DNA from: a virus
Direction: 5' to 3' (one strand)
IMG/VR virus record: IMGVR_UViG_3300047510_004033
Coordinates: 1-52,473 of that record
DNA: 52,473 nucleotides
The notes under the pieces: generated by a model
Told to the model about the DNA's origin: nothing
The model's input: only the letters and a program-made list of their open reading frames with translations
The model's database searches: none
Shown here: piece after piece, positions 10,791 through 32,492 of the stretch
Layout: each line of letters opens with the position of its first letter
How positions within the stretch are numbered: the first letter of the stretch is position 1
Translations under genes and position numbers: made by a program

Positions 10791-13700
10791 ATGCTGCTCG
10801 ACGGCCTAATCCTAGTAGAGGGTTCCACTGCAAGTAATTTGGTAATTGCCTCTGGTTCAAGTTTCCCAAGCAGTGCAGATCTTGGAGAACTTTTTTATAG
10901 ATCAGATTTGTCTCAACTTAGCATCTACAATGGCTCAACTTGGACAAACGTTTCTTCAGTTGGTGGACTTGGAACAGTCACATCGCTAGGAATTTCATCT
11001 TCAGATTTAGCTGTTAGCGGCAGCCCAGTGACCTCAAGTGGTACAATTACGCTGTCACTTAACACAATCCCAATAAGCAAAGGCGGTACTGGTGCAACAA
11101 CCACAGCAACCGCTATCAACAATCTTCTGCCTGCACAAACGGCAAACTCACAAAAATTCCTTAAAACTGATGGTACCAATGTCTCATGGGGCGTGGTAAC
11201 AACAGCGACGGTGTACGTTGGAACATCTACTGGTGATGTGTCTGCCGTAGAAGGTAATGCATTCTACGCTGATGGCACTGGAGATTCCGCGGAAGGCTTG
11301 CACGTTTACAGCGGCGGCAATTGGATTCAAGTAACTGGCGCAGGTTCAATTCCATCTGGCTTATTCACAGCAGATGTTGAAGGTGATGTTACCGGAACCA
11401 TAGTTGGTGGTGATACTGCAACATTGACTTTGGCTACTTCTGGTGTAGTAGCTGGCACATACACAAAAGTTACTGTTGATGAAAAGGGTCGTGTTACCAC
11501 AGCTACTACATTAGATGCTGGTGATATCCCCTCATTAGCTGGAACCTACTTAACTGGGAATGAAACAATTTCTTTATCAGGCGATGCGACCGGTTCCGGT
11601 TCAACATCAATTTCATTAACCTTAGCTAATTCAGGTGTAGCGGCTGGCACATATGGCACTGCCTCAGCCGTACCAACTGTAACTGTTGATGCGAAAGGCC
11701 GTTTGACTAGCGCCACAGCCACAAATATTGCAATTGCGGCATCTCAAATAACTTCAGGGACGTTGAGTGATTCTATCGTTGCTTCTTCTAACGTTACACA
11801 ACACCAAGCCTCATTGACAATAGCTGAAACACAAATAACTGATGGTGCCTTATTAGCTCGTGTTGGTTCATCTGAAACAATTTCTGGTACCTGGACATTC
11901 AATAGCCCAGTAACGGTTGGAACACCTGTTTCAGGCAGCCATGCCGCAACTAAGGATTATGTTGATAACACAATAACTGGCCTTGATATGAAGGCATCAG
12001 TTCGAGTTGCCACCACAGGCAATATCACATTATCTGGAACCCAAACAATTGATGGCGTTGCTGTAGTTGCTGGTAATCGCGTTTTAGTTAAAGATCAGAC
12101 TGTAGCTGCCGACAATGGAATTTATGTCGTGGCTGCAGGTTCTTGGTCTAGAGCAAGCGATGCAGATAATACACCAGATGGAGAAGTTACTTCTGGCATG
12201 TACGCTTTCGTAGAAGAAGGCACCACAAATGCCGATTCTGGGTGGGTACTAAGCACAAATAACCCAATTTCACTCGGCATCACAACTTTAACATTTGTTC
12301 AATTCAACGGCTTAGGTCAAGTCACAGCTGGTGCAGGTTTAACAAAAACTGGAAACACCGTGAATGTTGTTTCTGCTTCAGCTGATAGAGTTATTGTTAA
12401 TGCCGATAGCATTGATTTAGCTACAACTGGAACTGCCGGCACATATGCAAAAGTCACCACAGATGCATATGGTCGAGTGGTTTCTGGCGGCGCATTATCT
12501 GCTGGTGACATCCCATCACTTTCAAGTACATACCAACCGTTAGATGCCGATCTTACCGCAATTGCTGGTCTGGCTGGTACTTCTGGTCTTCTTAAGAAAA
12601 CCGGCGTCGATTCTTGGTCGCTTGATACCAGCACGTATTTGACAGGAAATGAATCAATTTCCGTAAGCGGTGATGCCACAGGTTCTGGGTCAACTTCAAT
12701 TGCATTAACGTTGGCTAACTCTGGCGTAGTTGCTGGGTCTTATACAAAAGTTACAGTTGACGCCAAAGGCCGTGTTACCACAGCCACTTCAATAACCGCT
12801 GGTGATATTCCTTCATTAGCAAGCACATATGTGTTAAAAGCTGGTGATACTGTGACTGGGACCTTAACTGGTACTAACTTCCATGCTGGTGCAGGAACCA
12901 CATCTTCACCGTCAATCTCGTTCTCAGCAGATACTAATACTGGTATCTACAATCCTGCTGCAGATACACTTGCCTTCGTAGAAGGCGGCGTTGAATCAAT
13001 GCGAATTGATTCTGCCGGTAATGTTGCAATCGGCACCTCAACTAATTCATTAGGCCATCGCCTTATGGTTTATGGTGCATCGCCTGGTGGGATTGCGACA
13101 CAGGGCGTGGATTACTTATTTGCAGTCAAGTCAACAGCAACAGCTTCATATCTTGGTTTTAATCAAAACACAATCGCCGTCTCAGGTGCAACACCATTAC
13201 TATTTGGTATTGGTGTCAATGAAGCAATGCGAATTGATTCTTCTGGTAATGTTGGTGTTGGTACATCATCGCCTTCAGCAAAACTCCATGTAGGTGGCCA
13301 TGTCAGCGCAACTTCAGTTTTTGCTGCGACAACTCTTTCTGTTTCATCGTCTGGCCAAATTTATTTGCCAAATGCCTGGACTACTTCCTCTGGTCATCTT
13401 GTTCTTAAAAACGGCACGGATTTCGGAAAGGGCAATGAATTCCATCTTGGTTATTTCCCTACACCAAATGATGGCTCAGAAGCATGGTTGATGCTTTATG
13501 GCTCATCCTCTGCAACGTTGCATATGGCCGTTACAGATGGTAACATGATGGTTGGTACTACAGCCCATGGTGGTAACAGATTAACTGTTGCGGGAACTGC
13601 AACAACTACAGCTCTAAGAATAGGAAGTGGCAGTACATCTTCACCATCATTGTCGTTCCTTGATGATTTTGCAACTGGTATCTTCAAACCAACCACAACA

Positions 13701-15335
13701 ACATTAGGTTTCTCAACTAATGGTGGTGAAAGAATGCGAATTGATTCTTCGGGCTTCGTTGGCATCGGCACCACAGCACCTACGCAAAGATTACATGTGA
13801 TTGGCACTGCCACCATGTCTGCAATTTCAGTAGGGTACGGGTCTAATCCATCACCAGGAATAGCATCATTTACATTCGGTCATGGCCCACAGTATAACTT
13901 AGAAATGACAGGTACATCAAGAATATCAGCAAATAAATCATCATCAACATTTATTGTTGCGTATTCAGACAACGGCGGTGCTAATGCTTCTGGTTTTGGT
14001 TTAAGAAATTTGGAAGACACGTGGATGTTTTCTCCTTATCGTGGCGGAACAGGTACAGTTCGACCACTAAGATTTGCAACTAACACGTGGGGTGATTCAA
14101 CAACTGGTGTCGCTTTAACAATAGAAACAAATAGTAATGTTGGTATTGGAACTAGTACAGTTAATGCTAGGCTTGACGTTTATGGTGGTGATGCGTTAAT
14201 TAATGGAGTCACTGTTGGCAGAGGCGTAGGCGGCCAAGATAATATTGCTCTCGGTACTTCAGCTTTAGCAGCTAATACAACCGGTATTGGTAACGTTGCT
14301 GTAGGTCGTGCAGTTTTAATGGCAAATACCACTGGCACGTATAATACTGCTGTTGGTTATGACTCGCTGAAATCTAACACCTCCGGCACCAATAACGTAG
14401 CAGTCGGACCATTTACTCTGCTGCTTAATAAAGCTGGTTGGGCAAACACTGCGGTTGGCGCAAATGCAATGCAGGCCAATACAACCGGCTCAAATAACGT
14501 AGCTATAGGCCATCTGTCAATGTACGCTAACACTGGAGGTTCATATAACAGTGCAATCGGCCGAAGCGCGTTATATGCTAACACTTCAGGTTATGAAAAT
14601 AGTGCACTCGGTTTTGCAGCGTTGCTTGCTAATACTATCGGTTATCATAACGTAGCAGTTGGCACTAGAAGTCTTCAAACTAACACCTCTGGTTATAGAC
14701 TCACTGTTCTTGGCACAGATGCCATGAATAAAAACACGACTGGCCATAGCAGCGTAGCCGTAGGTTATGCTTCACAATACAACAATCTAACTGGCGAACA
14801 AAATGTTAGTATTGGTCGTGGTTCATTATATGCTAATGCTTCTGGGTCATGGAATGTAGCAATTGGTCAAGATGCCCTGTATTACTCATCCGGAACCAAT
14901 AACTTCGGCATAGGTTATCTTTCTGGTGCAGATGCATTGTTGAACATCACAACTGCAAGCAACCAAGGTGTGATTGGTAACAACAGCACCACCAACATCA
15001 CTGCTAAAGTTGCAATCACTGTCCCATCAGATATTCGTGATAAGACAGAAATTGCACCCGTAACGCTTGGTCTTGGCTTCGTCAATTCGGTGAATCCGAT
15101 TTCTTATCGCTTTAAGAAATCACGTGACTCAGAAGAGGCAGTTGGTCGTAAGATTCTCGGCTTCTCCGCTCAAGAGCTATTACCACTCCAAGGCGATGCA
15201 ACAATTATTGATGCCTCAGATGCAAATCTGTTGAAATTCAATTCTCAGGATTTAATTGCGGTGTTATTTAAAGCAGTTAAAGAGCTATCTACGGAGATTG
15301 AAATTCTTAAGGCTAAGATTGATAATAAAGAATAA
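10791..15335 (+). CDS. Tail fibre/spike with YadA-like repeats and a C-terminal S74 intramolecular chaperone
   Basis: A 1514-residue trimeric-fibre protein. The first about 55 residues match the start of the fibre at 15475 and probably attach it to the virion. Residues 60-700 carry fibre repeats (VTVDAKGRVTSAT and GDIPSLASTY motifs) and a GDRVLV-type module (about 420-505). Residues 730-1010 have repeated MRIDSSGNVGIGT units, and residues 1151-1370 form thirteen 17-residue NVAVGxxAL repeats. The C-terminus is a Peptidase_S74 chaperone domain starting SDIRDKTEI: Ser1413 and Lys1418 have the five-residue spacing expected for the Ser-Lys pair of autocleaving endosialidase-type chaperones, which release the domain after trimer folding. 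The last about 20 residues form a coiled coil. The ribosome site is GGGGG and a terminator follows. Confidence 0.88.
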   Translation: MLLDGLILVEGSTASNLVIASGSSFPSSADLGELFYRSDLSQLSIYNGSTWTNVSSVGGLGTVTSLGISSSDLAVSGSPVTSSGTITLSLNTIPISKGGTGATTTATAINNLLPAQTANSQKFLKTDGTNVSWGVVTTATVYVGTSTGDVSAVEGNAFYADGTGDSAEGLHVYSGGNWIQVTGAGSIPSGLFTADVEGDVTGTIVGGDTATLTLATSGVVAGTYTKVTVDEKGRVTTATTLDAGDIPSLAGTYLTGNETISLSGDATGSGSTSISLTLANSGVAAGTYGTASAVPTVTVDAKGRLTSATATNIAIAASQITSGTLSDSIVASSNVTQHQASLTIAETQITDGALLARVGSSETISGTWTFNSPVTVGTPVSGSHAATKDYVDNTITGLDMKASVRVATTGNITLSGTQTIDGVAVVAGNRVLVKDQTVAADNGIYVVAAGSWSRASDADNTPDGEVTSGMYAFVEEGTTNADSGWVLSTNNPISLGITTLTFVQFNGLGQVTAGAGLTKTGNTVNVVSASADRVIVNADSIDLATTGTAGTYAKVTTDAYGRVVSGGALSAGDIPSLSSTYQPLDADLTAIAGLAGTSGLLKKTGVDSWSLDTSTYLTGNESISVSGDATGSGSTSIALTLANSGVVAGSYTKVTVDAKGRVTTATSITAGDIPSLASTYVLKAGDTVTGTLTGTNFHAGAGTTSSPSISFSADTNTGIYNPAADTLAFVEGGVESMRIDSAGNVAIGTSTNSLGHRLMVYGASPGGIATQGVDYLFAVKSTATASYLGFNQNTIAVSGATPLLFGIGVNEAMRIDSSGNVGVGTSSPSAKLHVGGHVSATSVFAATTLSVSSSGQIYLPNAWTTSSGHLVLKNGTDFGKGNEFHLGYFPTPNDGSEAWLMLYGSSSATLHMAVTDGNMMVGTTAHGGNRLTVAGTATTTALRIGSGSTSSPSLSFLDDFATGIFKPTTTTLGFSTNGGERMRIDSSGFVGIGTTAPTQRLHVIGTATMSAISVGYGSNPSPGIASFTFGHGPQYNLEMTGTSRISANKSSSTFIVAYSDNGGANASGFGLRNLEDTWMFSPYRGGTGTVRPLRFATNTWGDSTTGVALTIETNSNVGIGTSTVNARLDVYGGDALINGVTVGRGVGGQDNIALGTSALAANTTGIGNVAVGRAVLMANTTGTYNTAVGYDSLKSNTSGTNNVAVGPFTLLLNKAGWANTAVGANAMQANTTGSNNVAIGHLSMYANTGGSYNSAIGRSALYANTSGYENSALGFAALLANTIGYHNVAVGTRSLQTNTSGYRLTVLGTDAMNKNTTGHSSVAVGYASQYNNLTGEQNVSIGRGSLYANASGSWNVAIGQDALYYSSGTNNFGIGYLSGADALLNITTASNQGVIGNNSTTNITAKVAITVPSDIRDKTEIAPVTLGLGFVNSVNPISYRFKKSRDSEEAVGRKILGFSAQELLPLQGDATIIDASDANLLKFNSQDLIAVLFKAVKELSTEIEILKAKIDNKE
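14241..14900 (+). repeat. Thirteen 17-residue repeats (51 bp) in the fibre shaft
   Basis: Repeats with the pattern NxAxGxxALxxNTxGxx recur every 51 bases from 14241; the thirteenth is one residue shorter and a partial unit (NFGIGYLSG) follows. The pattern resembles the left-handed beta-roll of YadA head repeats, so this is probably a stiff trimeric shaft placed before the chaperone. Confidence 0.85.
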
Positions 15336-15474: not shown

Positions 15475-16281
15475 ATGTTACTCGACGGCCTTAATCTGGT
15501 GGAAGGCTCCACCGCTACAAATTTGGTTTTAGCTTCAGGAACATCAAATCCATCAAATCCTAATGTTGGTGAATTATTTTACAGATCAGATAGTCAGGCT
15601 ATTGTTGTTTATAATGGTTCTGCCTGGGTAGAAGTAGCTGGTGGTGGCGGTGGTGGATCAGGCACTGTAACTTCAGTTAATGCTACATCAACAGATATTA
15701 CTGTAAGTGGTGGCCCAATTACAACAACTGGCTCCTTAACATTATCACTTAATAATTCTGGAGTAGCTGCTGGAACATATACAAAAGTTACGGTTGATGC
15801 TAAAGGTCGAGTAACCTCAGCAACAACATTAACCGCAGCTGATATCCCCTCATTAGCTGACACATATATGTTAAAAACTGGTGATACTGTAACCGGTACC
15901 ACAACAGTTACTAACTTGGTGTTAACTGGTCCAGCAGAGTTGAAATCATACACTGAATCATATTTCTCTGTGACTGGGGCCTCAACAACAAACATTGATG
16001 TTTCATCAGGCTCAATGGTGCTTTTAACACTTAGTTCAAGTATTAACACACTAACATTTAGTAATGTTCCGTCAGCACCAAAAGTTGCTTCCCTGAACAT
16101 GTTTATTGAGCAAGCTGGTGGCGGCAGTAAGACTATAACTTGGCCTAATGCAGTTAAATGGGCAAATGCGGCCGCGCCGACTCTATCAACAACTGCTACC
16201 AGAGTAGATGTTGTTACTTTAGTTACTTATAACAGTGGTACTTCTTGGTTCGGTTTTATTTCCGGCCAGAATTATGCTTGA
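15475..16281 (+). CDS. Short tail fibre sharing its N-terminus with the S74 fibre
   Basis: A 268-residue protein. Its first about 55 residues (MLLDGLNLVEGSTATNLV, then GELFYRSDSQ) closely match the start of the 1514-residue fibre, so both probably dock at the same virion site. A Gly-rich hinge (GGGGGGSGT) and one fibre repeat (TKVTVDAKGRVTSAT, ADIPSLADTY) follow. The C-terminal about 110 residues form a distinct beta domain (SYFSVTGAST ... KTITWPN ... NSGTSWFGFISGQNYA), of a kind that often ends phage side fibres. No chaperone domain is present. The ribosome site AGGGG precedes the ATG. The next late-promoter-like box overlaps its stop codon. Confidence 0.72.
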   Translation: MLLDGLNLVEGSTATNLVLASGTSNPSNPNVGELFYRSDSQAIVVYNGSAWVEVAGGGGGGSGTVTSVNATSTDITVSGGPITTTGSLTLSLNNSGVAAGTYTKVTVDAKGRVTSATTLTAADIPSLADTYMLKTGDTVTGTTTVTNLVLTGPAELKSYTESYFSVTGASTTNIDVSSGSMVLLTLSSSINTLTFSNVPSAPKVASLNMFIEQAGGGSKTITWPNAVKWANAAAPTLSTTATRVDVVTLVTYNSGTSWFGFISGQNYA

Positions 16282-18443: not shown

Positions 18444-18480
18444 GCAAACGGTTTATTTTATATAAACCGTTTGCATTTTA
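18444..18480 (+). terminator. Terminator fused to a late promoter
   Basis: Perfect 13-bp stem GCAAACGGTTTAT / ATAAACCGTTTGC (18444-18456 and 18462-18474) with a TTTAT loop, followed by ATTTTA. The tail runs directly into the next TATAAATA box. Confidence 0.88.
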
Positions 18481-18486
18481 TAAATA
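18479..18486 (+). promoter_or_regulatory. Late promoter, exact TATAAATA
   Basis: Exact late -10 box beginning inside the U-tract of the terminator at 18444 and 32 bases before the ATG at 18519. It heads the operon running to 25778. Confidence 0.75.
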
Positions 18487-18518: not shown

Positions 18519-20912
18519 ATGCAATTTCAAATCTTAACAGAAGGTATTGCACATCTTGAAGATTTAACTCCTGAATCTTTTCTTGAGGTTCTTCAAAATC
18601 TGGAGAAATTTATTGCCACTGAAAAATTAGATGGCTTTAATTTTCGCTTTGGACTTGATTCAGCTGGTAAATTATATACTTCTCGTGAAAGCAAAGGCGC
18701 AAAAGATCGAATATTTGACGCTGATGATTATGGCACAGGTGCAGCCCAATTAAAATTTGCTGCAGCCCATCGCGCAATTCAAGATCAAGAAAAGATACTC
18801 CAAAAAGAATTAAAGCCCGGTGAGGCCGTAGAGATAGAAGTATTATCTGGCGAACAGCCAAATGCTATCAAATACGGTATTGACAATAAGAACTACATTT
18901 CACTACTCAGAATGGTTCCTGGTGATCTTGAAGAGGTAGATCAAAACAGATTAAAAGATATTTCAAAAGCGCTCTTAGGAAAGACTTCAAAGATCAGAAC
19001 ACCAATTTTAGACACCGAAGATGGAAAAAATCTGAAATTAATTTCAGTTAATATGAGTTGGGAATTTGTACCAGCTCAGAAAATTGACAGTGCTGAATTA
19101 AAAGAAATTGATGTTTCTTCCGAAATTGAAGAAATGCAAAAATATCTAGATTCAATCAATCAGTCATTAGACATGACAAACAGAGAAGTTCTAGCGCTGA
19201 AATTAACTTCAATCCCAAAGGAAAATCGTGAAAAAGCAAAAGAGGAAAGAGAACGCGTGAAAACTGAGGTGCTTGATAACTTCAAGCTACCAATTAAACA
19301 AAAATTTCTATCTCAGCTTGTCAGTAAGATAGAACCAAAGCTTCAAAAGAGTTCAGTAGACCCCAAAGAAAAAATTGGCGTTGAAGGGATTGTTCTATTA
19401 GATCCAGAAACACAAGAACAAGTAAAATTAGTAGATAAAGATACTTACACAACAATAAATTCATTCAATTTTGCAGTTCGAAAAAAAATCTCCGGTGCTG
19501 TTAGAAAAGCTGATGTTGAAGCTGAAGATGAATTATCTGGTGGAATTGAAGGTCGTGCCATGATTAGGATTGCTAAACTTTTCGGCAATCCATCTTTAGC
19601 ATTAACCATGCAGGCGAAACGTCAAATAGAAAAAATGAATGCCAAAACTGCGGAAGAAGCCGCAATTAAGATTGCTGAAAAGTCTTCTGTTAATTTTATG
19701 GATCTAAAAACAAAAATACTTTCTATCTTAGCAGCAGCCGAAAAAGATATTAACGAAGAATTAGAAAAATTTAAACGTGAAGCTAAAGATTATAAATTAG
19801 TTCTTAAAGATGGGCGAGAAGTGAAATATACACAAGAAATAATTAAAAGAACACTAATTCAATTCGCTGAGACTCTTTCAAAAATTTCTGAACTTGAGCG
19901 TTTAGTTAATAAAGCAAAGTCTAAAGAAGGATTGGTTGCTGCCATTTATGGAAATAAAATTAAGCAGATTTTTGGTCAGCAATTAGAAGAAGCATTAAGC
20001 CTATTTAAACCGCGAAAAATGAAAGTGCCGCTCTTACAATTTACTGATAGATTGGAATTACTCTCAAGAATTACACCAGAGCAAGCACACAACGCCTACA
20101 CGGCGAATTTGCTGGCAGCTTTACTGTTAGTCGCGACAAATTCAAGAACTGGTATAAAGGCGCTTCATGATCCCGAACACGCGAATCTACAAAAGCTGTC
20201 GCCTGACATGAGCGATTTGAATTTCTGGGGCGCAATTGTTTTTTATCCCGACAAGAAGCATGTTAAACCATACTTAAGTGCAGACACCGGTGCAGCGCTT
20301 TGGAAATCAGCCAAACGCATTTTTAAGGAAAGAATTAAAACAATCCACACTCCTATTTCTACAGATATAAGTTTTAACACTGTTAACTGGGAAGAACAGT
20401 CTGAAAATATGAGAGTCATCACTCTTAGGTTTGAAAATAGAACAAAGGCTATAAATATCATTCGAGCTGGAATTCCAACTTTTGATTTCTTGGATCAAGC
20501 AGCGCAGAATGATGTGATACAAAAAACATATATGCTGCTATTAAGACATGACCCGGCATCAAAATTGTTATCAGAGTTAAGAAAAACACAAAATGCGAAT
20601 TTATTAGGAGCTGCTGGAGTGGAAGCCAAAAAAAGTCTTATCAGAAGCGTTAACAAAATTGCTGAAGATAATCAACGAGTTAGTGAGACCACAGCAGGCG
20701 CAACAGGTGCAGCCGCTGTTGGTGGTGCACCAGCTGGCGCTGGTACAGGACCCATGGTTCACATGGCTACCACCAGTGATATTCCTGCCACCACAGCCGC
20801 TAGTATTGCAAGCTATCCCGTAAGAATTTTTAATAACGCGGCCGTCATGAGAAGAAAGAGAAATTTTCAAGCTACTTCCAAATTTATGAAACCAGTTAAG
20901 GATAAAAAATGA
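18519..20912 (+). CDS. Large protein with covalent nucleotidyltransferase (ligase-type) motifs
   Basis: A 797-residue protein. The N-terminal region has the signature order of DNA/RNA ligases and capping enzymes: motif I KLDG (Lys36, Asp38, Gly39), a LYTSRESKG strand 12 residues on, a VEIEVL segment (103-109) where motif III would fall, VEGIVLL (288-294, motif IV) and VKLVDK (302-307, motif V). Residues 190-285 insert a charged helical stretch between motifs III and IV, which is unusual. The remaining about 450 residues are mostly helical and end in an Ala/Gly-rich linker and a basic tail. An adenylated lysine intermediate is predicted if it is active. It heads an operon controlled by a late promoter, unlike replication ligases, so a virion or prohead role is possible. 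The ribosome site is AAGG. Confidence 0.62.
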   Translation: MQFQILTEGIAHLEDLTPESFLEVLQNLEKFIATEKLDGFNFRFGLDSAGKLYTSRESKGAKDRIFDADDYGTGAAQLKFAAAHRAIQDQEKILQKELKPGEAVEIEVLSGEQPNAIKYGIDNKNYISLLRMVPGDLEEVDQNRLKDISKALLGKTSKIRTPILDTEDGKNLKLISVNMSWEFVPAQKIDSAELKEIDVSSEIEEMQKYLDSINQSLDMTNREVLALKLTSIPKENREKAKEERERVKTEVLDNFKLPIKQKFLSQLVSKIEPKLQKSSVDPKEKIGVEGIVLLDPETQEQVKLVDKDTYTTINSFNFAVRKKISGAVRKADVEAEDELSGGIEGRAMIRIAKLFGNPSLALTMQAKRQIEKMNAKTAEEAAIKIAEKSSVNFMDLKTKILSILAAAEKDINEELEKFKREAKDYKLVLKDGREVKYTQEIIKRTLIQFAETLSKISELERLVNKAKSKEGLVAAIYGNKIKQIFGQQLEEALSLFKPRKMKVPLLQFTDRLELLSRITPEQAHNAYTANLLAALLLVATNSRTGIKALHDPEHANLQKLSPDMSDLNFWGAIVFYPDKKHVKPYLSADTGAALWKSAKRIFKERIKTIHTPISTDISFNTVNWEEQSENMRVITLRFENRTKAINIIRAGIPTFDFLDQAAQNDVIQKTYMLLLRHDPASKLLSELRKTQNANLLGAAGVEAKKSLIRSVNKIAEDNQRVSETTAGATGAAAVGGAPAGAGTGPMVHMATTSDIPATTAASIASYPVRIFNNAAVMRRKRNFQATSKFMKPVKDKK

Positions 20913-22339
20913 CTCAAAAACATGATAAGCCATTGAGCGAAACTACCGCTGCTGGCACACAACCAAAGCTCAATCTTTCTCTTTTGAGCCAAGTAGATAA
21001 TGCTCAAGCCGCTAAACAAGCTGGCCATGAACTTTCAACTAATGACGTTCACAAAATTTTATCTGATGCTCATGCCGAAGATGAAGAAGTTGAAACTGAA
21101 GCGTTCGGCTTAGAAACAGATGAAGGCGACATTGTTAAAGTGTACGTTAATATTAAAGACAGTGATGGCTTTGAAAAAGCCCTCGCTGATATGTTAGGAT
21201 CTGAAGATGACATTGAAACTGCTCTTGAGAAACTATCAACTCGTTTTGACATCGTTGATGTAGAATGGCCAGATATGGAAGAAGAGGAAGAGGGAGAAGA
21301 AGAGGGAGAAGAAGACAAAGAAGAGGACTGTGAAGACTGTGAAGGTTGTGAAAAGTGTGAAACAGAAGATGAAGCTGAAGCTGAACTCGAGTTGAGTCCC
21401 GAAGATTTGGAAAAAGCTGCTGAGGCCGAAGAAGAAGAAGAAATAAAACAAGAGGAGAGCAAAATGTCATCATTTGGACAAAAATTTACACAGCGTTTAT
21501 TGTCAGCCATCAATCAGGAGATCACCTCTGACAGCTCATTAACTGAGGCAGTAGATAAAAAAGAAATGCTTTTTGATTTAACTGTAGATCAAAAAGAACT
21601 CGAGCGCAAATTTCAAATTCCGATGCAGCGCAAAATTATTCAAACTATTTTGCTGATGGGTTTTCCAGTTTCGCAACTTAAAACAAAACTTTCATCTCTG
21701 CGTGATGGCGTAGAAGCCGCGCAAGAAACTCTGACCTCAAACCCACAGGCACTACGTTATTTTAAAGAGCTACACAAAGTTTTAGGCCAAATGGTTGGTG
21801 CTAAGCAAAGTGAAAAAGCTGAGGTGATGGAAGGCGAAAAAGATGCACATTTCTCCTCAATCTACCAGCAAAAAATTTATGATCTTTACAAAATGCTTGG
21901 TGTTCCAGAAGAATTATTGGGCCAACAAAAGAAAACTCGCTTTATTGAACAACTAAAAGATATGGCAATTTTGGTAATGTCTTCACCAGAGCTGCGCCGC
22001 GTAGTTAACAATTTAGAAAAAGCTCTTGGAAAAGAAGATGCGGCTATCGGCATGAAGTCAACTGACCGCCCAGTCGGCGAGAAAATAATGGCTGAAGAAA
22101 TGATGGCAAGTGACGCACTAGGCACTTCACCATTGGCACAAGTTTTAGTTAATCTGTTTAACGCGTTAGAATTAGGCGATGCAATAAACAAACAAGACGT
22201 ACTCCAAAAACTGAAGAAACAAATTCGAGACGACAGAATGGAAGTCAAAGGAATGTCGATGATCGTCAACAAGTTGAATTCAGCTGTTGAGATGATTAAC
22301 AAAGGTAAAGCAAAACCAGCAGAAGGTGCTGAGGAATAA
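20909..22339 (+). CDS. Hyperacidic protein with a CxxCxxCxxC cluster, possible prohead/internal protein
   Basis: A 476-residue protein overlapping the upstream gene by four bases (ATGA). Residues 1-120 form a mixed domain, and residues 123-184 are a Glu/Asp-dominated segment containing Cys141, Cys144, Cys147 and Cys150. From residue 186 on there is a helical domain to the end. A strong ribosome-site-like GAGGAG lies just before the in-frame ATG of residue 186 (21464), so a 291-residue shorter product may also be made. Acidic segments are typical of phage prohead core proteins, which are removed on maturation. That role is inferred from composition and from the basic neighbour, not from homology. 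Confidence 0.55.
   Translation: MTQKHDKPLSETTAAGTQPKLNLSLLSQVDNAQAAKQAGHELSTNDVHKILSDAHAEDEEVETEAFGLETDEGDIVKVYVNIKDSDGFEKALADMLGSEDDIETALEKLSTRFDIVDVEWPDMEEEEEGEEEGEEDKEEDCEDCEGCEKCETEDEAEAELELSPEDLEKAAEAEEEEEIKQEESKMSSFGQKFTQRLLSAINQEITSDSSLTEAVDKKEMLFDLTVDQKELERKFQIPMQRKIIQTILLMGFPVSQLKTKLSSLRDGVEAAQETLTSNPQALRYFKELHKVLGQMVGAKQSEKAEVMEGEKDAHFSSIYQQKIYDLYKMLGVPEELLGQQKKTRFIEQLKDMAILVMSSPELRRVVNNLEKALGKEDAAIGMKSTDRPVGEKIMAEEMMASDALGTSPLAQVLVNLFNALELGDAINKQDVLQKLKKQIRDDRMEVKGMSMIVNKLNSAVEMINKGKAKPAEGAEE
21451..21466 (+). promoter_or_regulatory. Possible internal translation start within the acidic protein
   Basis: AGAGGAGAG at 21451-21459 lies five bases before an in-frame ATG (21464-21466) at the boundary between the acidic linker and the helical domain. 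GAA/GAG codons mimic ribosome sites in acidic stretches, so this may be coincidental. Confidence 0.4.
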
Positions 22340-22355
22340 TTCGACAGGACCTAAA

Positions 22356-22652
22356 ATGAATAAGCCTGTTATATCACTTCTGCAGCAAATTGATGAAGCA
22401 GTCCGCGCTTTTAGAAGGCGCGGGCATGAAATCAAACGAGTGTTTGTTTGCGCGGGCGGCCCGCGTAAAGGTAAAAAAGTCAGTAAGCTAACTGCATGTT
22501 TTAAACGGCGTAAACCGCTTAAAACGCGCCTTAAATTACGTAAAGCAGCATTAAGAACTAAGGCGCAGCGCGCAGTTAAAACAAAATTGGGACTCAGAAA
22601 AGCAGCACATTTCAAATTAATACGTCTGAATAAAGCTATTAGAAAAAGATGA
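22356..22652 (+). CDS. Hyperbasic 98-residue protein, possible DNA-binding virion protein
   Basis: About 34 of 98 residues are Lys or Arg and only three are acidic. After a short amphipathic helix (residues 4-20) comes a long series of Lys/Arg clusters (RRRG, PRKGKK, FKRRKPLK, LRKAALRTKAQRAVKTK). It would bind nucleic acid or the hyperacidic protein encoded immediately upstream. The ATG at 22356 after AGGAC is preferred over a GTG at 22326, which overlaps the previous gene. The stop overlaps the nuclease start by four bases. Possible roles are a packaged DNA-condensing protein, a prohead core protein or a counter-ion partner for the acidic protein. No named family is recognised. Confidence 0.7.
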   Translation: MNKPVISLLQQIDEAVRAFRRRGHEIKRVFVCAGGPRKGKKVSKLTACFKRRKPLKTRLKLRKAALRTKAQRAVKTKLGLRKAAHFKLIRLNKAIRKR

Positions 22653-23317
22653 CTCAATTTAATTACAAAGACTACGACACTGTTAATTTAAATAACACAC
22701 GCTTCTATGACATTGACGGCTGTCATTATCCATCTATTACTTCAGTTTTGGGCAATACCATGTCTGAGGAAAAGAAGAAATCTTTGCAAAATTGGCGAAA
22801 TTCTCTAGGCGCCGAGAAGGCAGCTAAATTTACTAAGGACGCCGCCGAACGTGGCACACAGATTCACTTAATGTGCGAGCGCTTTCTGAAAGGCGAAAAT
22901 GTAGTTCAGAAACCAAATGAATTTACTCCTCAAGTACTTGGCATGTTTAATGGACTTAAGTTAAAGCTCGGAAAAATAAAAGACATTTGGGGTCAAGAAG
23001 TTGTTTTATACTCTCATGAGTTAGAAGTTGCTGGGCGCTGTGACTTAATTGGCGTCTATAATGACTCTCCAGCAATAATCGATTTTAAAACTAGCACTAG
23101 GCTAAAAGATAAATCAAAAATTGGAGATTACGTATTACAGATTACTGCATACGCTCAGATGCACAATGAAATGTTTGACACTAAAATAGAAAAAGGTGTC
23201 ATTTTAATGATCACTGAGCAAGGTTTTCCGAGTGAATTTCATTACACACTTACTGAACATAAATTAGAACTTGAAAAACGAGTTGCAGACTTTTACACTC
23301 GCCTTCTTGACGCATAA
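22649..23317 (+). CDS. PD-(D/E)XK exonuclease, MGME1/RecB-like
   Basis: A 222-residue single-domain nuclease with the full motif order of the MGME1/Cas4/RecB branch: RGTQIHLMCERFL (His73), a Glu strand GQEVVLYS (Glu117), GRCDLIG (Asp132), IIDFKTS (Asp145 and Lys147) and QITAYAQM (Gln164, Tyr168). All expected catalytic residues appear present. Such enzymes trim single-stranded DNA ends and occur in T4-like marine phages, where they may degrade host DNA or process replication or packaging intermediates. It is embedded, with ATGA overlap, in an operon of structural-looking genes rather than among the replication genes. Confidence 0.85.
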   Translation: MTQFNYKDYDTVNLNNTRFYDIDGCHYPSITSVLGNTMSEEKKKSLQNWRNSLGAEKAAKFTKDAAERGTQIHLMCERFLKGENVVQKPNEFTPQVLGMFNGLKLKLGKIKDIWGQEVVLYSHELEVAGRCDLIGVYNDSPAIIDFKTSTRLKDKSKIGDYVLQITAYAQMHNEMFDTKIEKGVILMITEQGFPSEFHYTLTEHKLELEKRVADFYTRLLDA

Positions 23318-31431: not shown

Positions 31432-32034
31432 TTAAATAAACTTAGCAACACCAGTTTGCTGTGATGAGAATGTAATCGTTGTTCTATTCACTGTGTTATG
31501 AGTGATTGAAGCTGGCTGAACTTCTTGATCATTAATAAACACACGAACATCTGGCTCATATCCTAAAGCATGATCAATAACCCATGTTGTTAAAGCATAT
31601 GACTGGGTGTGTTCATAAGAATAAACTGGTTTAGCATTACCCTCAGTGCTTCCAGAAACCACGAAAACAGTTCCTGTGGCTGGCGAATTTAAACTAACCT
31701 GAACAGTATTCTGATCAATGATCTCAATTTCATTAGGGATAATAACTTTTTTCAAACTATCAAATACCTGAACTGAAACTGTGCCAGCACGTAAGTTATG
31801 TGTTACGGTCCAAGTTGATGCTGAAGAGGACTGAGTATGCACATAAGATGTGATTTCTCTTGTTAAAGGAACCCAAACAGGAAGGCCGTTTGAGAAACCA
31901 ACAACAATGTAAACTACGCTATCTTTAAAAACAACTTGTCCTAAAACCGGACTAGCTGGAAATGTCTCAATAACTTCCAGGGCCGGGTTTTGTAACTGAT
32001 TTTTCTGTAAATCTGCGTGGCCATAAAATTTCAT
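31432..32034 (-). CDS. Two-module WTIxH protein, paralogue of the gene at 32079
   Basis: A 200-residue protein. Residues 1-62 (MKFYGHADLQKNQLQNPAL to WVPLTRE) match the start of the 137-residue protein encoded next upstream, at the DNA level as well. Then come two WTIxH modules: STWTVTHNL (about 67-130) and TTWVIDHAL (about 137-200). The second ends with SSQQTGVAKFI, like the single-module proteins. The upstream paralogue stops just after its first module, so this gene appears to have gained a module, or the other lost one. A tail or fibre-tip assembly role is inferred from the company it keeps. Confidence 0.7.
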   Translation of the reverse strand: MKFYGHADLQKNQLQNPALEVIETFPASPVLGQVVFKDSVVYIVVGFSNGLPVWVPLTREITSYVHTQSSSASTWTVTHNLRAGTVSVQVFDSLKKVIIPNEIEIIDQNTVQVSLNSPATGTVFVVSGSTEGNAKPVYSYEHTQSYALTTWVIDHALGYEPDVRVFINDQEVQPASITHNTVNRTTITFSSQQTGVAKFI

Positions 32035-32078: not shown

Positions 32079-32492
32079 TTATTCGGTTGGTGCCCTATTA
32101 CCATCAAGACTACCAGTTGCAACAATTGCTCGGCCTATCATGGCGGAAGAAAGTGTAACTGTTGCTGTTGTTTTACTTGTAAGCTCAATCTCGCTAGGAA
32201 TTACCATTTTACTATCTTGATCGTAGATCTGAATGCTAACAATGTCCGAATTAAGATTATGGGTAATGGTCCATGAAGAGGATGATTCAGCTTGAATATG
32301 GATATGTGTTTCTACATCTCGTGTTAAAGGTACCCAGATTGGATAATTTTGAACATTGACACAGATGTAAACAGTATTACCTTTGAAAATAAGAGAACCA
32401 ACAACTGGATTGACTGGAAATGATGAAATAACTTCCAGTGCTGGATTCTGGAGCTGATTCTTTTGCAGGTTTGCGTTTCCATAAAATTTCAT
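32079..32492 (-). CDS. One-module WTIxH protein, paralogue of the gene at 31432
   Basis: A 137-residue protein. The first 60 residues (MKFYGNANLQKNQLQNPAL to WVPLTRD) are a shared N-terminal domain also found at the start of the 200-residue protein downstream; the remainder is one WTIxH module (SSWTITHNL ... MVIPSEIEL ... TVTLSSAMIGRAIVATGS) followed by a short tail DGNRAPTE. The corresponding point in the paralogue continues into a second module. A late-promoter-like box lies 42 bases upstream, so it heads the four-gene unit 30981-32492. No signal peptide or membrane helix is seen. Confidence 0.7.
   Translation of the reverse strand: MKFYGNANLQKNQLQNPALEVISSFPVNPVVGSLIFKGNTVYICVNVQNYPIWVPLTRDVETHIHIQAESSSSWTITHNLNSDIVSIQIYDQDSKMVIPSEIELTSKTTATVTLSSAMIGRAIVATGSLDGNRAPTE

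What the first reader, a model, noticed from the sequence alone, without database searches (positions are those of the whole stretch)
18519..20912. Ligase-type nucleotidyltransferase motifs in a late, structural-looking operon
KLDG, VEGIVLL and VKLVDK occur in the order and context of motifs I, IV and V of covalent nucleotidyltransferases. The protein is far larger than phage ligases (797 residues), has a helical insert between motifs III and IV, and is transcribed from a late promoter next to acidic and basic proteins. It could be a packaged nucleic-acid end-sealing enzyme, or a protein that AMPylates a partner, or a recycled fold.
Basis: partly seen in the sequence, partly recalled or inferred. 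Interest (0 to 1): 0.7.

Follow-up and report, generated by a model that had tools for sequence, protein, structure and literature searches.

The report
Ligase-like phage enzyme, probably head-packaged
A giant-phage gene encodes a new, intact relative of RNA and DNA ligases that is switched on late in infection and carries what looks like a removable address tag for the virus head, so it may be loaded into the particle and delivered into the next host cell to join broken nucleic-acid ends.

Summary
ORF 18519..20912 (797 aa) carries KLDG (Lys36), Glu289 and Lys303 in a predicted covalent-nucleotidyltransferase fold. In 75 non-redundant relatives, all from phages, Lys36, Asp38, Gly39, Glu107, Glu289, Gly290 and Lys303 never vary. 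AlphaFold2 on a 65-sequence alignment gives pLDDT 93.5, and the ranked PDB fold matches are ligases and capping enzymes. Individual scores are modest (best E 1.7e-3), so membership of a named ligase family is not shown. There is no OB fold; the C-terminal part is all-helical, as in RNA ligases.

First, the gene is late: a T4-type TATAAATA lies 33 nt upstream, and 54 of 68 relatives have TAAATA within 60 nt (random 3%). Second, the N-terminus, MQFQILTE|GIAHLEDL, matches the T4 prohead-protease site L/I-x-E, as do about 50 of 73 relatives; neighbours carry similar tags, and 15 of 16 genomes checked encode the matching protease.

Best reading: an active ligase-type enzyme, made late, probably packaged and processed in the head with an acidic partner, acting on nucleic-acid ends early in infection. 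Packaging and substrate are inferred: PA5oct virion data do not list its homologue.

The parts
18444..18474 (+). terminator-like hairpin between the fibre-type gene and the NTase operon
   Evidence: 13-pair stem with T-rich tail; scan total is no higher than in shuffles
18479..18486 (+). T4-type late promoter element TATAAATA, 33 nt before the ATG
   Evidence: exact match; TAAATA within 60 nt upstream of 54/68 homologous genes, 19% of other genes, 3% random
18519..20912 (+). ligase-type nucleotidyltransferase protein, 797 aa
18519..18542 (+). N-terminal extension MQFQILTE ending in a predicted prohead-protease site (L-T-E before G)
   Evidence: disordered in the model; [LI]xE at this place in about 50 of 73 relatives, absent with the whole extension in 8
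18543..19514 (+). nucleotidyltransferase domain, residues 9-332
   Evidence: AlphaFold2 pLDDT 93.5, pTM 0.89; ligase and capping folds fill the PDB ranking shown
18621..18635 (+). motif I EKLDG (Lys36, predicted nucleotidylated lysine)
   Evidence: K36, D38, G39 75/75
18684..18686 (+). motif Ia arginine (Arg56 in TSRESK)
   Evidence: 74/75
18837..18839 (+). motif III glutamate (Glu107 in EIEVL)
   Evidence: 75/75
19380..19400 (+). motif IV VEGIVLL (Glu289)
   Evidence: E289, G290 75/75
19419..19442 (+). motif V QVKLVDKD (Lys303)
   Evidence: K303 75/75, V305 74/75, D306 73/75
19437..19988 (+). all-helical C-terminal part of the NTase module (no OB fold)
   Evidence: secondary structure of the model
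20031..20618 (+). second helical domain, residues ~505-700; a separate gene in L039, L092 and others
   Evidence: possible distant relatives Atu_ph07 gp064 and Phosso 448
20790..20861 (+). short linear module TTAASIASYPVRIF...RRKR in the disordered tail
   Evidence: recurs only in NTase or acidic proteins, 18 distinct cases in about 3,750 ORFs
20909..22339 (+). acidic partner (476 aa, net charge -50), overlaps the NTase stop codon by 4 nt; fused to the NTase in L014, L015, L051, L056 and others
   Evidence: homologue in 97 held loci, many of them overlapping
22326..22652 (+). basic protein (net charge +33); from Met at 22356 it reads MNKPVISLLQQIDE|A
   Evidence: relatives in 27 held loci
22649..23317 (+). 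PD-(D/E)XK exonuclease of PHROG 298, conserved beside the NTase
   Evidence: E 1.1e-58; in 89 held loci

Best explanation
This is an enzymatically intact covalent nucleotidyltransferase of the polynucleotide ligase superfamily, closest in architecture to RNA ligases (NTase domain followed by a helical domain, no OB fold). It is transcribed late, carries an N-terminal targeting peptide ending in L-T-E that a T4 gp21-type protease would cut in the prohead, and is packaged in the head with the acidic protein encoded next to it. After injection it would load AMP from ATP onto Lys36, transfer it to a 5' phosphate, and seal RNA (or nicked DNA) ends before the phage's own ligases are made. Shown by conservation and prediction: fold, intact active site, late promoter, coupling to the acidic gene. 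Inferred: cleavage, packaging, ejection and the nucleic-acid substrate.
For: Active site invariant in 75 divergent relatives. The ranked PDB fold matches are ligases and capping enzymes; Pfam RNA_ligase is the only ligase family that hits at the right place, sub-threshold, and in Atu_ph07 it spans positions 3-169 of 171 at E 9.8e-4. Late promoter. [LI]xE before the mature fold in about 50 of 73 relatives. In 591 non-redundant neighbourhood proteins [LI]xE with Glu at residue 8 occurs 44 times against 6.4 per background position, and 23 against 1.4 with A/G/S after it. T4 gp21 cuts after L/I-X-E and a 10-residue N-terminal peptide is enough to target T4 IPIII to the head (PMC9026906). S77 protease in 15/16 genomes. 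Separate canonical RNA ligase in 15/16 and DNA ligase in 14/16 of the same genomes. ADP-ribosyltransferase-like neighbours in Atu_ph07, L041 and L050 share an N-terminus with invariant L6 and nearly invariant E8. A Pol-beta-type NTase lies beside it in PA5oct, Phosso, Atu_ph07, L033 and L035, and the PA5oct copy is labelled as detected by virion mass spectrometry.
Against: PA5oct's homologue is not among its MS-detected virion proteins although genes on both sides are; that member has only a poor site (I-A-E at residues 3-5). In PA5oct as a whole N-terminal [LI]xE is not enriched among MS-detected proteins (12/65 against 19/99). Twenty of 73 relatives have no site, including Atu_ph07 and Phosso. 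Profile-profile scores to ligases of the same phages are weak (P 0.002-0.07) and Foldseek E-values are modest (best 1.7e-3). The gene also lies between primase/helicase and an exonuclease, which could mean a replication role.
Confidence: 0.5

Rival explanations
1. An active ligase-type enzyme made late and used inside the producing cell (repair of tRNA, replication intermediates or DNA ends at packaging), not carried in the virion. The N-terminal LxE is part of the fold or coincidental.
For: Neighbouring primase, helicase and exonuclease genes; not MS-labelled in PA5oct; about a quarter of relatives lack the site.
Against: The extension is disordered in the model, unalignable and variable in length, yet keeps [LI]xE; in one subgroup the site stays while a 4-6 residue linker is added; neighbours of unrelated sequence share the tag.
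Confidence: 0.28
2. A packaged or late enzyme that transfers a nucleotide to a protein (AMPylation or guanylylation of the acidic partner or a host protein) rather than to nucleic acid.
For: Fusion and tight coupling to an acidic protein; neighbouring ART-like genes that may modify proteins.
Against: Characterised members of this superfamily act on RNA or DNA ends (own knowledge); the Pol-beta-type partner in some phages fits nucleic-acid repair, as in the RlaP and RNA-ligase pairing (PMC7824862).
Confidence: 0.12
3. A recycled, catalytically dead fold serving as a prohead core or structural protein.
For: Late expression, acidic and basic neighbours, disordered basic tail.
Against: Every nucleotide-binding and catalytic residue is invariant in 75 relatives at 20-40% identity; not expected of a dead enzyme.
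Confidence: 0.06

Closest known systems
RNA ligases of Pfam PF09414 / T4 Rnl2 type
   Same: Motifs I, Ia, III, IV, V in order; NTase domain plus helical C-terminal part; T4 Rnl2 is the top PDB match of the full-length model (2hvr, prob 0.98)
   Different: Below the Pfam cut-off (17.7 against 27 bits at best); long helical insert between motifs III and IV; extra C-terminal domain and tail; late promoter and N-terminal LxE extension; the same phages carry separate canonical RNA ligases
ATP-dependent DNA ligases (PF01068)
   Same: KxDG, EG(I/V)V and motif V; many DNA ligases in the fold ranking
   Different: No OB fold or motif VI seen in the model; a separate DNA ligase exists in 14/16 genomes
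T4 internal head proteins and Alt (capsid-targeted, gp21-processed)
   Same: Short N-terminal peptide ending in [LI]xE, late expression, S77 protease in related genomes, neighbours that resemble ADP-ribosyltransferases
   Different: The enzyme is of the ligase superfamily, not an ADP-ribosyltransferase; packaging not demonstrated
RlaP / RNA ligase repair pairs of phages (PMC7824862)
   Same: A Pol-beta-type NTase sits beside the ligase-like gene in PA5oct, Phosso, Atu_ph07, L033 and L035
   Different: No Pfam hit to RlaP for that neighbour; not found beside the window's copy; profile matches to RlaP lie elsewhere in the genomes

Membership tests
Covalent nucleotidyltransferase superfamily (ligases and capping enzymes) | KxDG lysine plus motif III Glu, motif IV Glu, motif V Lys, all conserved | tested here: met
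   75/75 relatives
Covalent nucleotidyltransferase superfamily (ligases and capping enzymes) | NTase fold | tested here: met
   pLDDT 93.5 model; ligases and capping enzymes fill the shown PDB ranking, best E 1.7e-3, prob up to 0.99.
Covalent nucleotidyltransferase superfamily (ligases and capping enzymes) | covalent lysyl-NMP intermediate | not testable with these tools
   needs biochemistry
RNA ligase PF09414 (Rnl2-like) | profile match above curated cut-off | tested here: not met
   window 15.6, L001 17.7 bits against cut-off 27; Atu_ph07 copy 17.0 bits over nearly the full profile
RNA ligase PF09414 (Rnl2-like) | helical C-terminal domain instead of OB fold | tested here: met
   no strands after residue 305 except one small hairpin
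ATP-dependent DNA ligase | OB-fold domain with motif VI after motif V | tested here: not met
   secondary structure of the model
T4-type capsid-targeted head protein | N-terminal propeptide ending in L/I-X-E | tested here: met
   MQFQILTE|G; about 50 of 73 relatives
T4-type capsid-targeted head protein | gp21-type protease in the same genome | tested here: inconclusive
   15/16 relatives' genomes have PF03420; the window itself is a 52-kb fragment
T4-type capsid-targeted head protein | protein present and cut in the virion | tested here: inconclusive
   PA5oct homologue not MS-labelled; Atu_ph07 NTase gene lies in a cluster with 29 MS-identified virion proteins (PMC6102473), but the supplementary protein list was not readable

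The most novel reading that the evidence does not exclude
A broad group of T4-related giant phages packages a protease-matured, ligase-type enzyme in the head, in some phages together with a Pol-beta-type nucleotidyltransferase and ADP-ribosyltransferase-like effectors, and injects it as a ready-made nucleic-acid repair kit that acts before any phage gene is expressed.
Probability: 0.33. Interest if true: 0.8.

Novelty: new variant of a known kind. Interest (0 to 1): 0.6.

Why it matters
Known head-packaged enzymes include RNA polymerases and ADP-ribosyltransferases; I found no description of a packaged ligase-type enzyme in the papers searched. If true, giant phages could undo tRNA cleavage or DNA breakage by host defences in the first moments of infection. 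Independently, a family with an invariant active site, present in many uncultivated and three isolated phage groups and annotated almost everywhere as hypothetical, gets a testable function, and the LxE N-terminus offers a possible way to list candidate injected proteins from sequence.

Tried and rejected
(1) Direct sequence search of PDB with the protein and with its profile: only chance coiled-coil type hits. (2) PHROG and NCBIfam: no usable family for the NTase. (3) Search of bacterial and archaeal genomes: no relative. (4) Test that N-terminal [LI]xE predicts virion presence in PA5oct: failed, 12/65 against 19/99; the PA5oct MS set also contains soluble enzymes such as thymidylate synthase and its DNA ligase, so it includes carry-over or other cargo. 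(5) Profile-profile comparison with ligases of the same phages: correct motif register for motif I, weak significance. (6) Confirming the ADP-ribosyltransferase-like neighbours by profile: no named family in Pfam, PHROGs or PDB sequences; the assignment rests on the YRG ... S-x-x-[FI] ... E pattern only. (7) Two further members searched against isolated phages added no further isolate group. (8) One mistyped paper id was fetched and is irrelevant.

Full report
WHAT IS THERE. The ORF at 18519..20912 encodes 797 aa. The window is a 52,473-base virus record with primase, DnaB-type helicase, tail sheath, fibre-type and lysis-type genes. Two IMG/VR contigs carry an 84%-identical copy. Wider searches gave 30 and then at least 80 phage loci (the output limit), several on contigs of 200-390 kb. 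Isolated relatives are the PA5oct group of Pseudomonas jumbo phages, Sinorhizobium phage Phosso and Agrobacterium phage Atu_ph07. The scan of bacterial and archaeal genome contigs found no relative.

THE ENZYME. In 75 non-redundant relatives Lys36, Asp38, Gly39, Gly45, Glu107, Asn115, Tyr119, Glu289, Gly290 and Lys303 are invariant and Arg56 occurs in 74, although identity to the window drops to 20-40%. AlphaFold2 gives pLDDT 80.6 for the full protein and 93.5 (pTM 0.89) for residues 9-332. Foldseek against the PDB returns T4 Rnl2, fungal tRNA ligase, ASFV ligase, trypanosome RNA editing ligase, human DNA ligase 1 and capping enzymes; for the trimmed domain all 50 rows shown are ligases, ligase complexes or capping enzymes. 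Single scores are modest (best E 1.7e-3; TM against 5cot about 0.4), so the superfamily is well supported and the closer family is not. Pfam RNA_ligase is the only ligase family to appear, below its cut-off. After motif V the model is helical, without an OB fold: against DNA ligase or capping enzyme, in line with RNA ligase architecture.

WHY 797 RESIDUES. In L039, L092, L098 and others the NTase part is a gene of about 500 aa followed by a separate gene for the domain that corresponds to window residues ~505-700. In L014, L015, L051, L056, L060 and others the NTase is instead fused to the acidic protein that is the next gene here. The acidic gene is found in 97 held loci, many of them overlapping copies of the same contigs, and overlaps the NTase stop codon by 4 nt. 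A physical partnership of NTase and acidic protein is therefore likely.

LATE EXPRESSION. TATAAATA lies at 18479-18486. The window has 9 copies against 3.4 expected, reached in none of 100 shuffles. TAAATA occurs within 60 nt upstream of 54 of 68 homologous genes, 19% of other genes in the same loci and 3% of random places. The T4 late promoter is TATAAATA; NATAAATA and CTAAATA variants are described for T4-like relatives (PMC2984593, PMC1524935).

HEAD TARGETING. T4 gp21 cuts after L/I-X-E, and a 10-residue N-terminal peptide suffices to target IPIII to the head (PMC9026906). The window protein starts MQFQILTE|GIAHLEDL; the first eight residues are disordered in the model. About 50 of 73 distinct relatives have [LI]xE in an otherwise variable N-terminal extension (53 by the script; I discount L095, L059 and L003), usually directly before the conserved G-I-x-H and in one subgroup separated by 4-6 residues; eight lack the extension and begin at the predicted mature end. 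Among 591 non-redundant neighbourhood proteins, [LI]xE with Glu at residue 8 is sevenfold over background, and seventeenfold with A/G/S following. This set includes the NTases, but many of the residue-8 cases are other proteins of the form MKLxELLEA. ART-like neighbours as little as 14% identical share an invariant Leu6 and nearly invariant Glu8. A gp21-type S77 protease is found in 15 of 16 genomes checked.

LIMITS. Virion presence is not shown. In PA5oct the genes on both sides of the homologue are labelled as MS-detected, the homologue is not, and its N-terminal site is poor. Across PA5oct the motif does not predict MS detection. In Atu_ph07 the NTase gene lies in a cluster with 29 MS-identified virion proteins, but the list itself could not be read, and that copy has no extension.

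SUBSTRATE. The same genomes carry canonical RNA ligases (15/16) and DNA ligases (14/16), so this copy is not their general ligase. In PA5oct, Phosso, Atu_ph07, L033 and L035 a Pol-beta-type NTase (GS...GDID...QVDFM) lies beside it; the pairing of Pol-beta NTases with RNA ligases in RNA repair is known (PMC7824862). I therefore favour RNA end joining, at about even odds against DNA nick sealing and protein modification together.

VERDICT. A real and, by conservation, enzymatically intact new family of the ligase superfamily, late-expressed; probably, not certainly, head cargo.

Noticed in passing
L109:12594-21029 (Atu_ph07): Tandem array of about ten paralogues, most starting M[RK]WxQL[TI]E, with an ADP-ribosyltransferase-like YRG / SxSxFxT / E pattern; L6 invariant and E8 nearly so. 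PHROGs 11975, 12810 and 15932, unknown function.
   Followed up: partly
L005:12570-13283, L004:9199-10059, L109:11013-11846, L033:11085-11918, L035:9501-10352: Unannotated Pol-beta-type nucleotidyltransferase beside the ligase-like gene; the PA5oct copy is labelled as a virion protein by ESI-MS/MS.
   Followed up: partly
window 20790-20861; also L051, L057, L060, L102, L103, L105, L030: Conserved linear module TxxxIAxxP...RRKR that stays between NTase and acidic domain wherever the gene boundary falls. Function unexplained.
   Followed up: partly
MK797984.1 176918-178288 (L137:26918-28288): PA5oct DNA ligase EST35_0267 is also labelled ESI-MS/MS, with thymidylate synthase, GTP cyclohydrolase and ribonucleotide reductase: carry-over or more cargo.
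   Followed up: no
window 10791-15335 and 15475-16281: Two structural-looking proteins share the N-terminus MLLDGLxLVEGSTAxNLVxASG, itself with an LVE|G site.
   Followed up: no
window 31432-32034 and 32079-32492: Two adjacent minus-strand proteins share the N-terminus MKFYGxAxLQKNQLQNPALEVI.
   Followed up: no
window, whole: TATAAATA occurs 9 times (3.4 expected), several 20-60 nt before gene starts on both strands (3490, 18479, 25787, 30957, 43228).
   Followed up: partly
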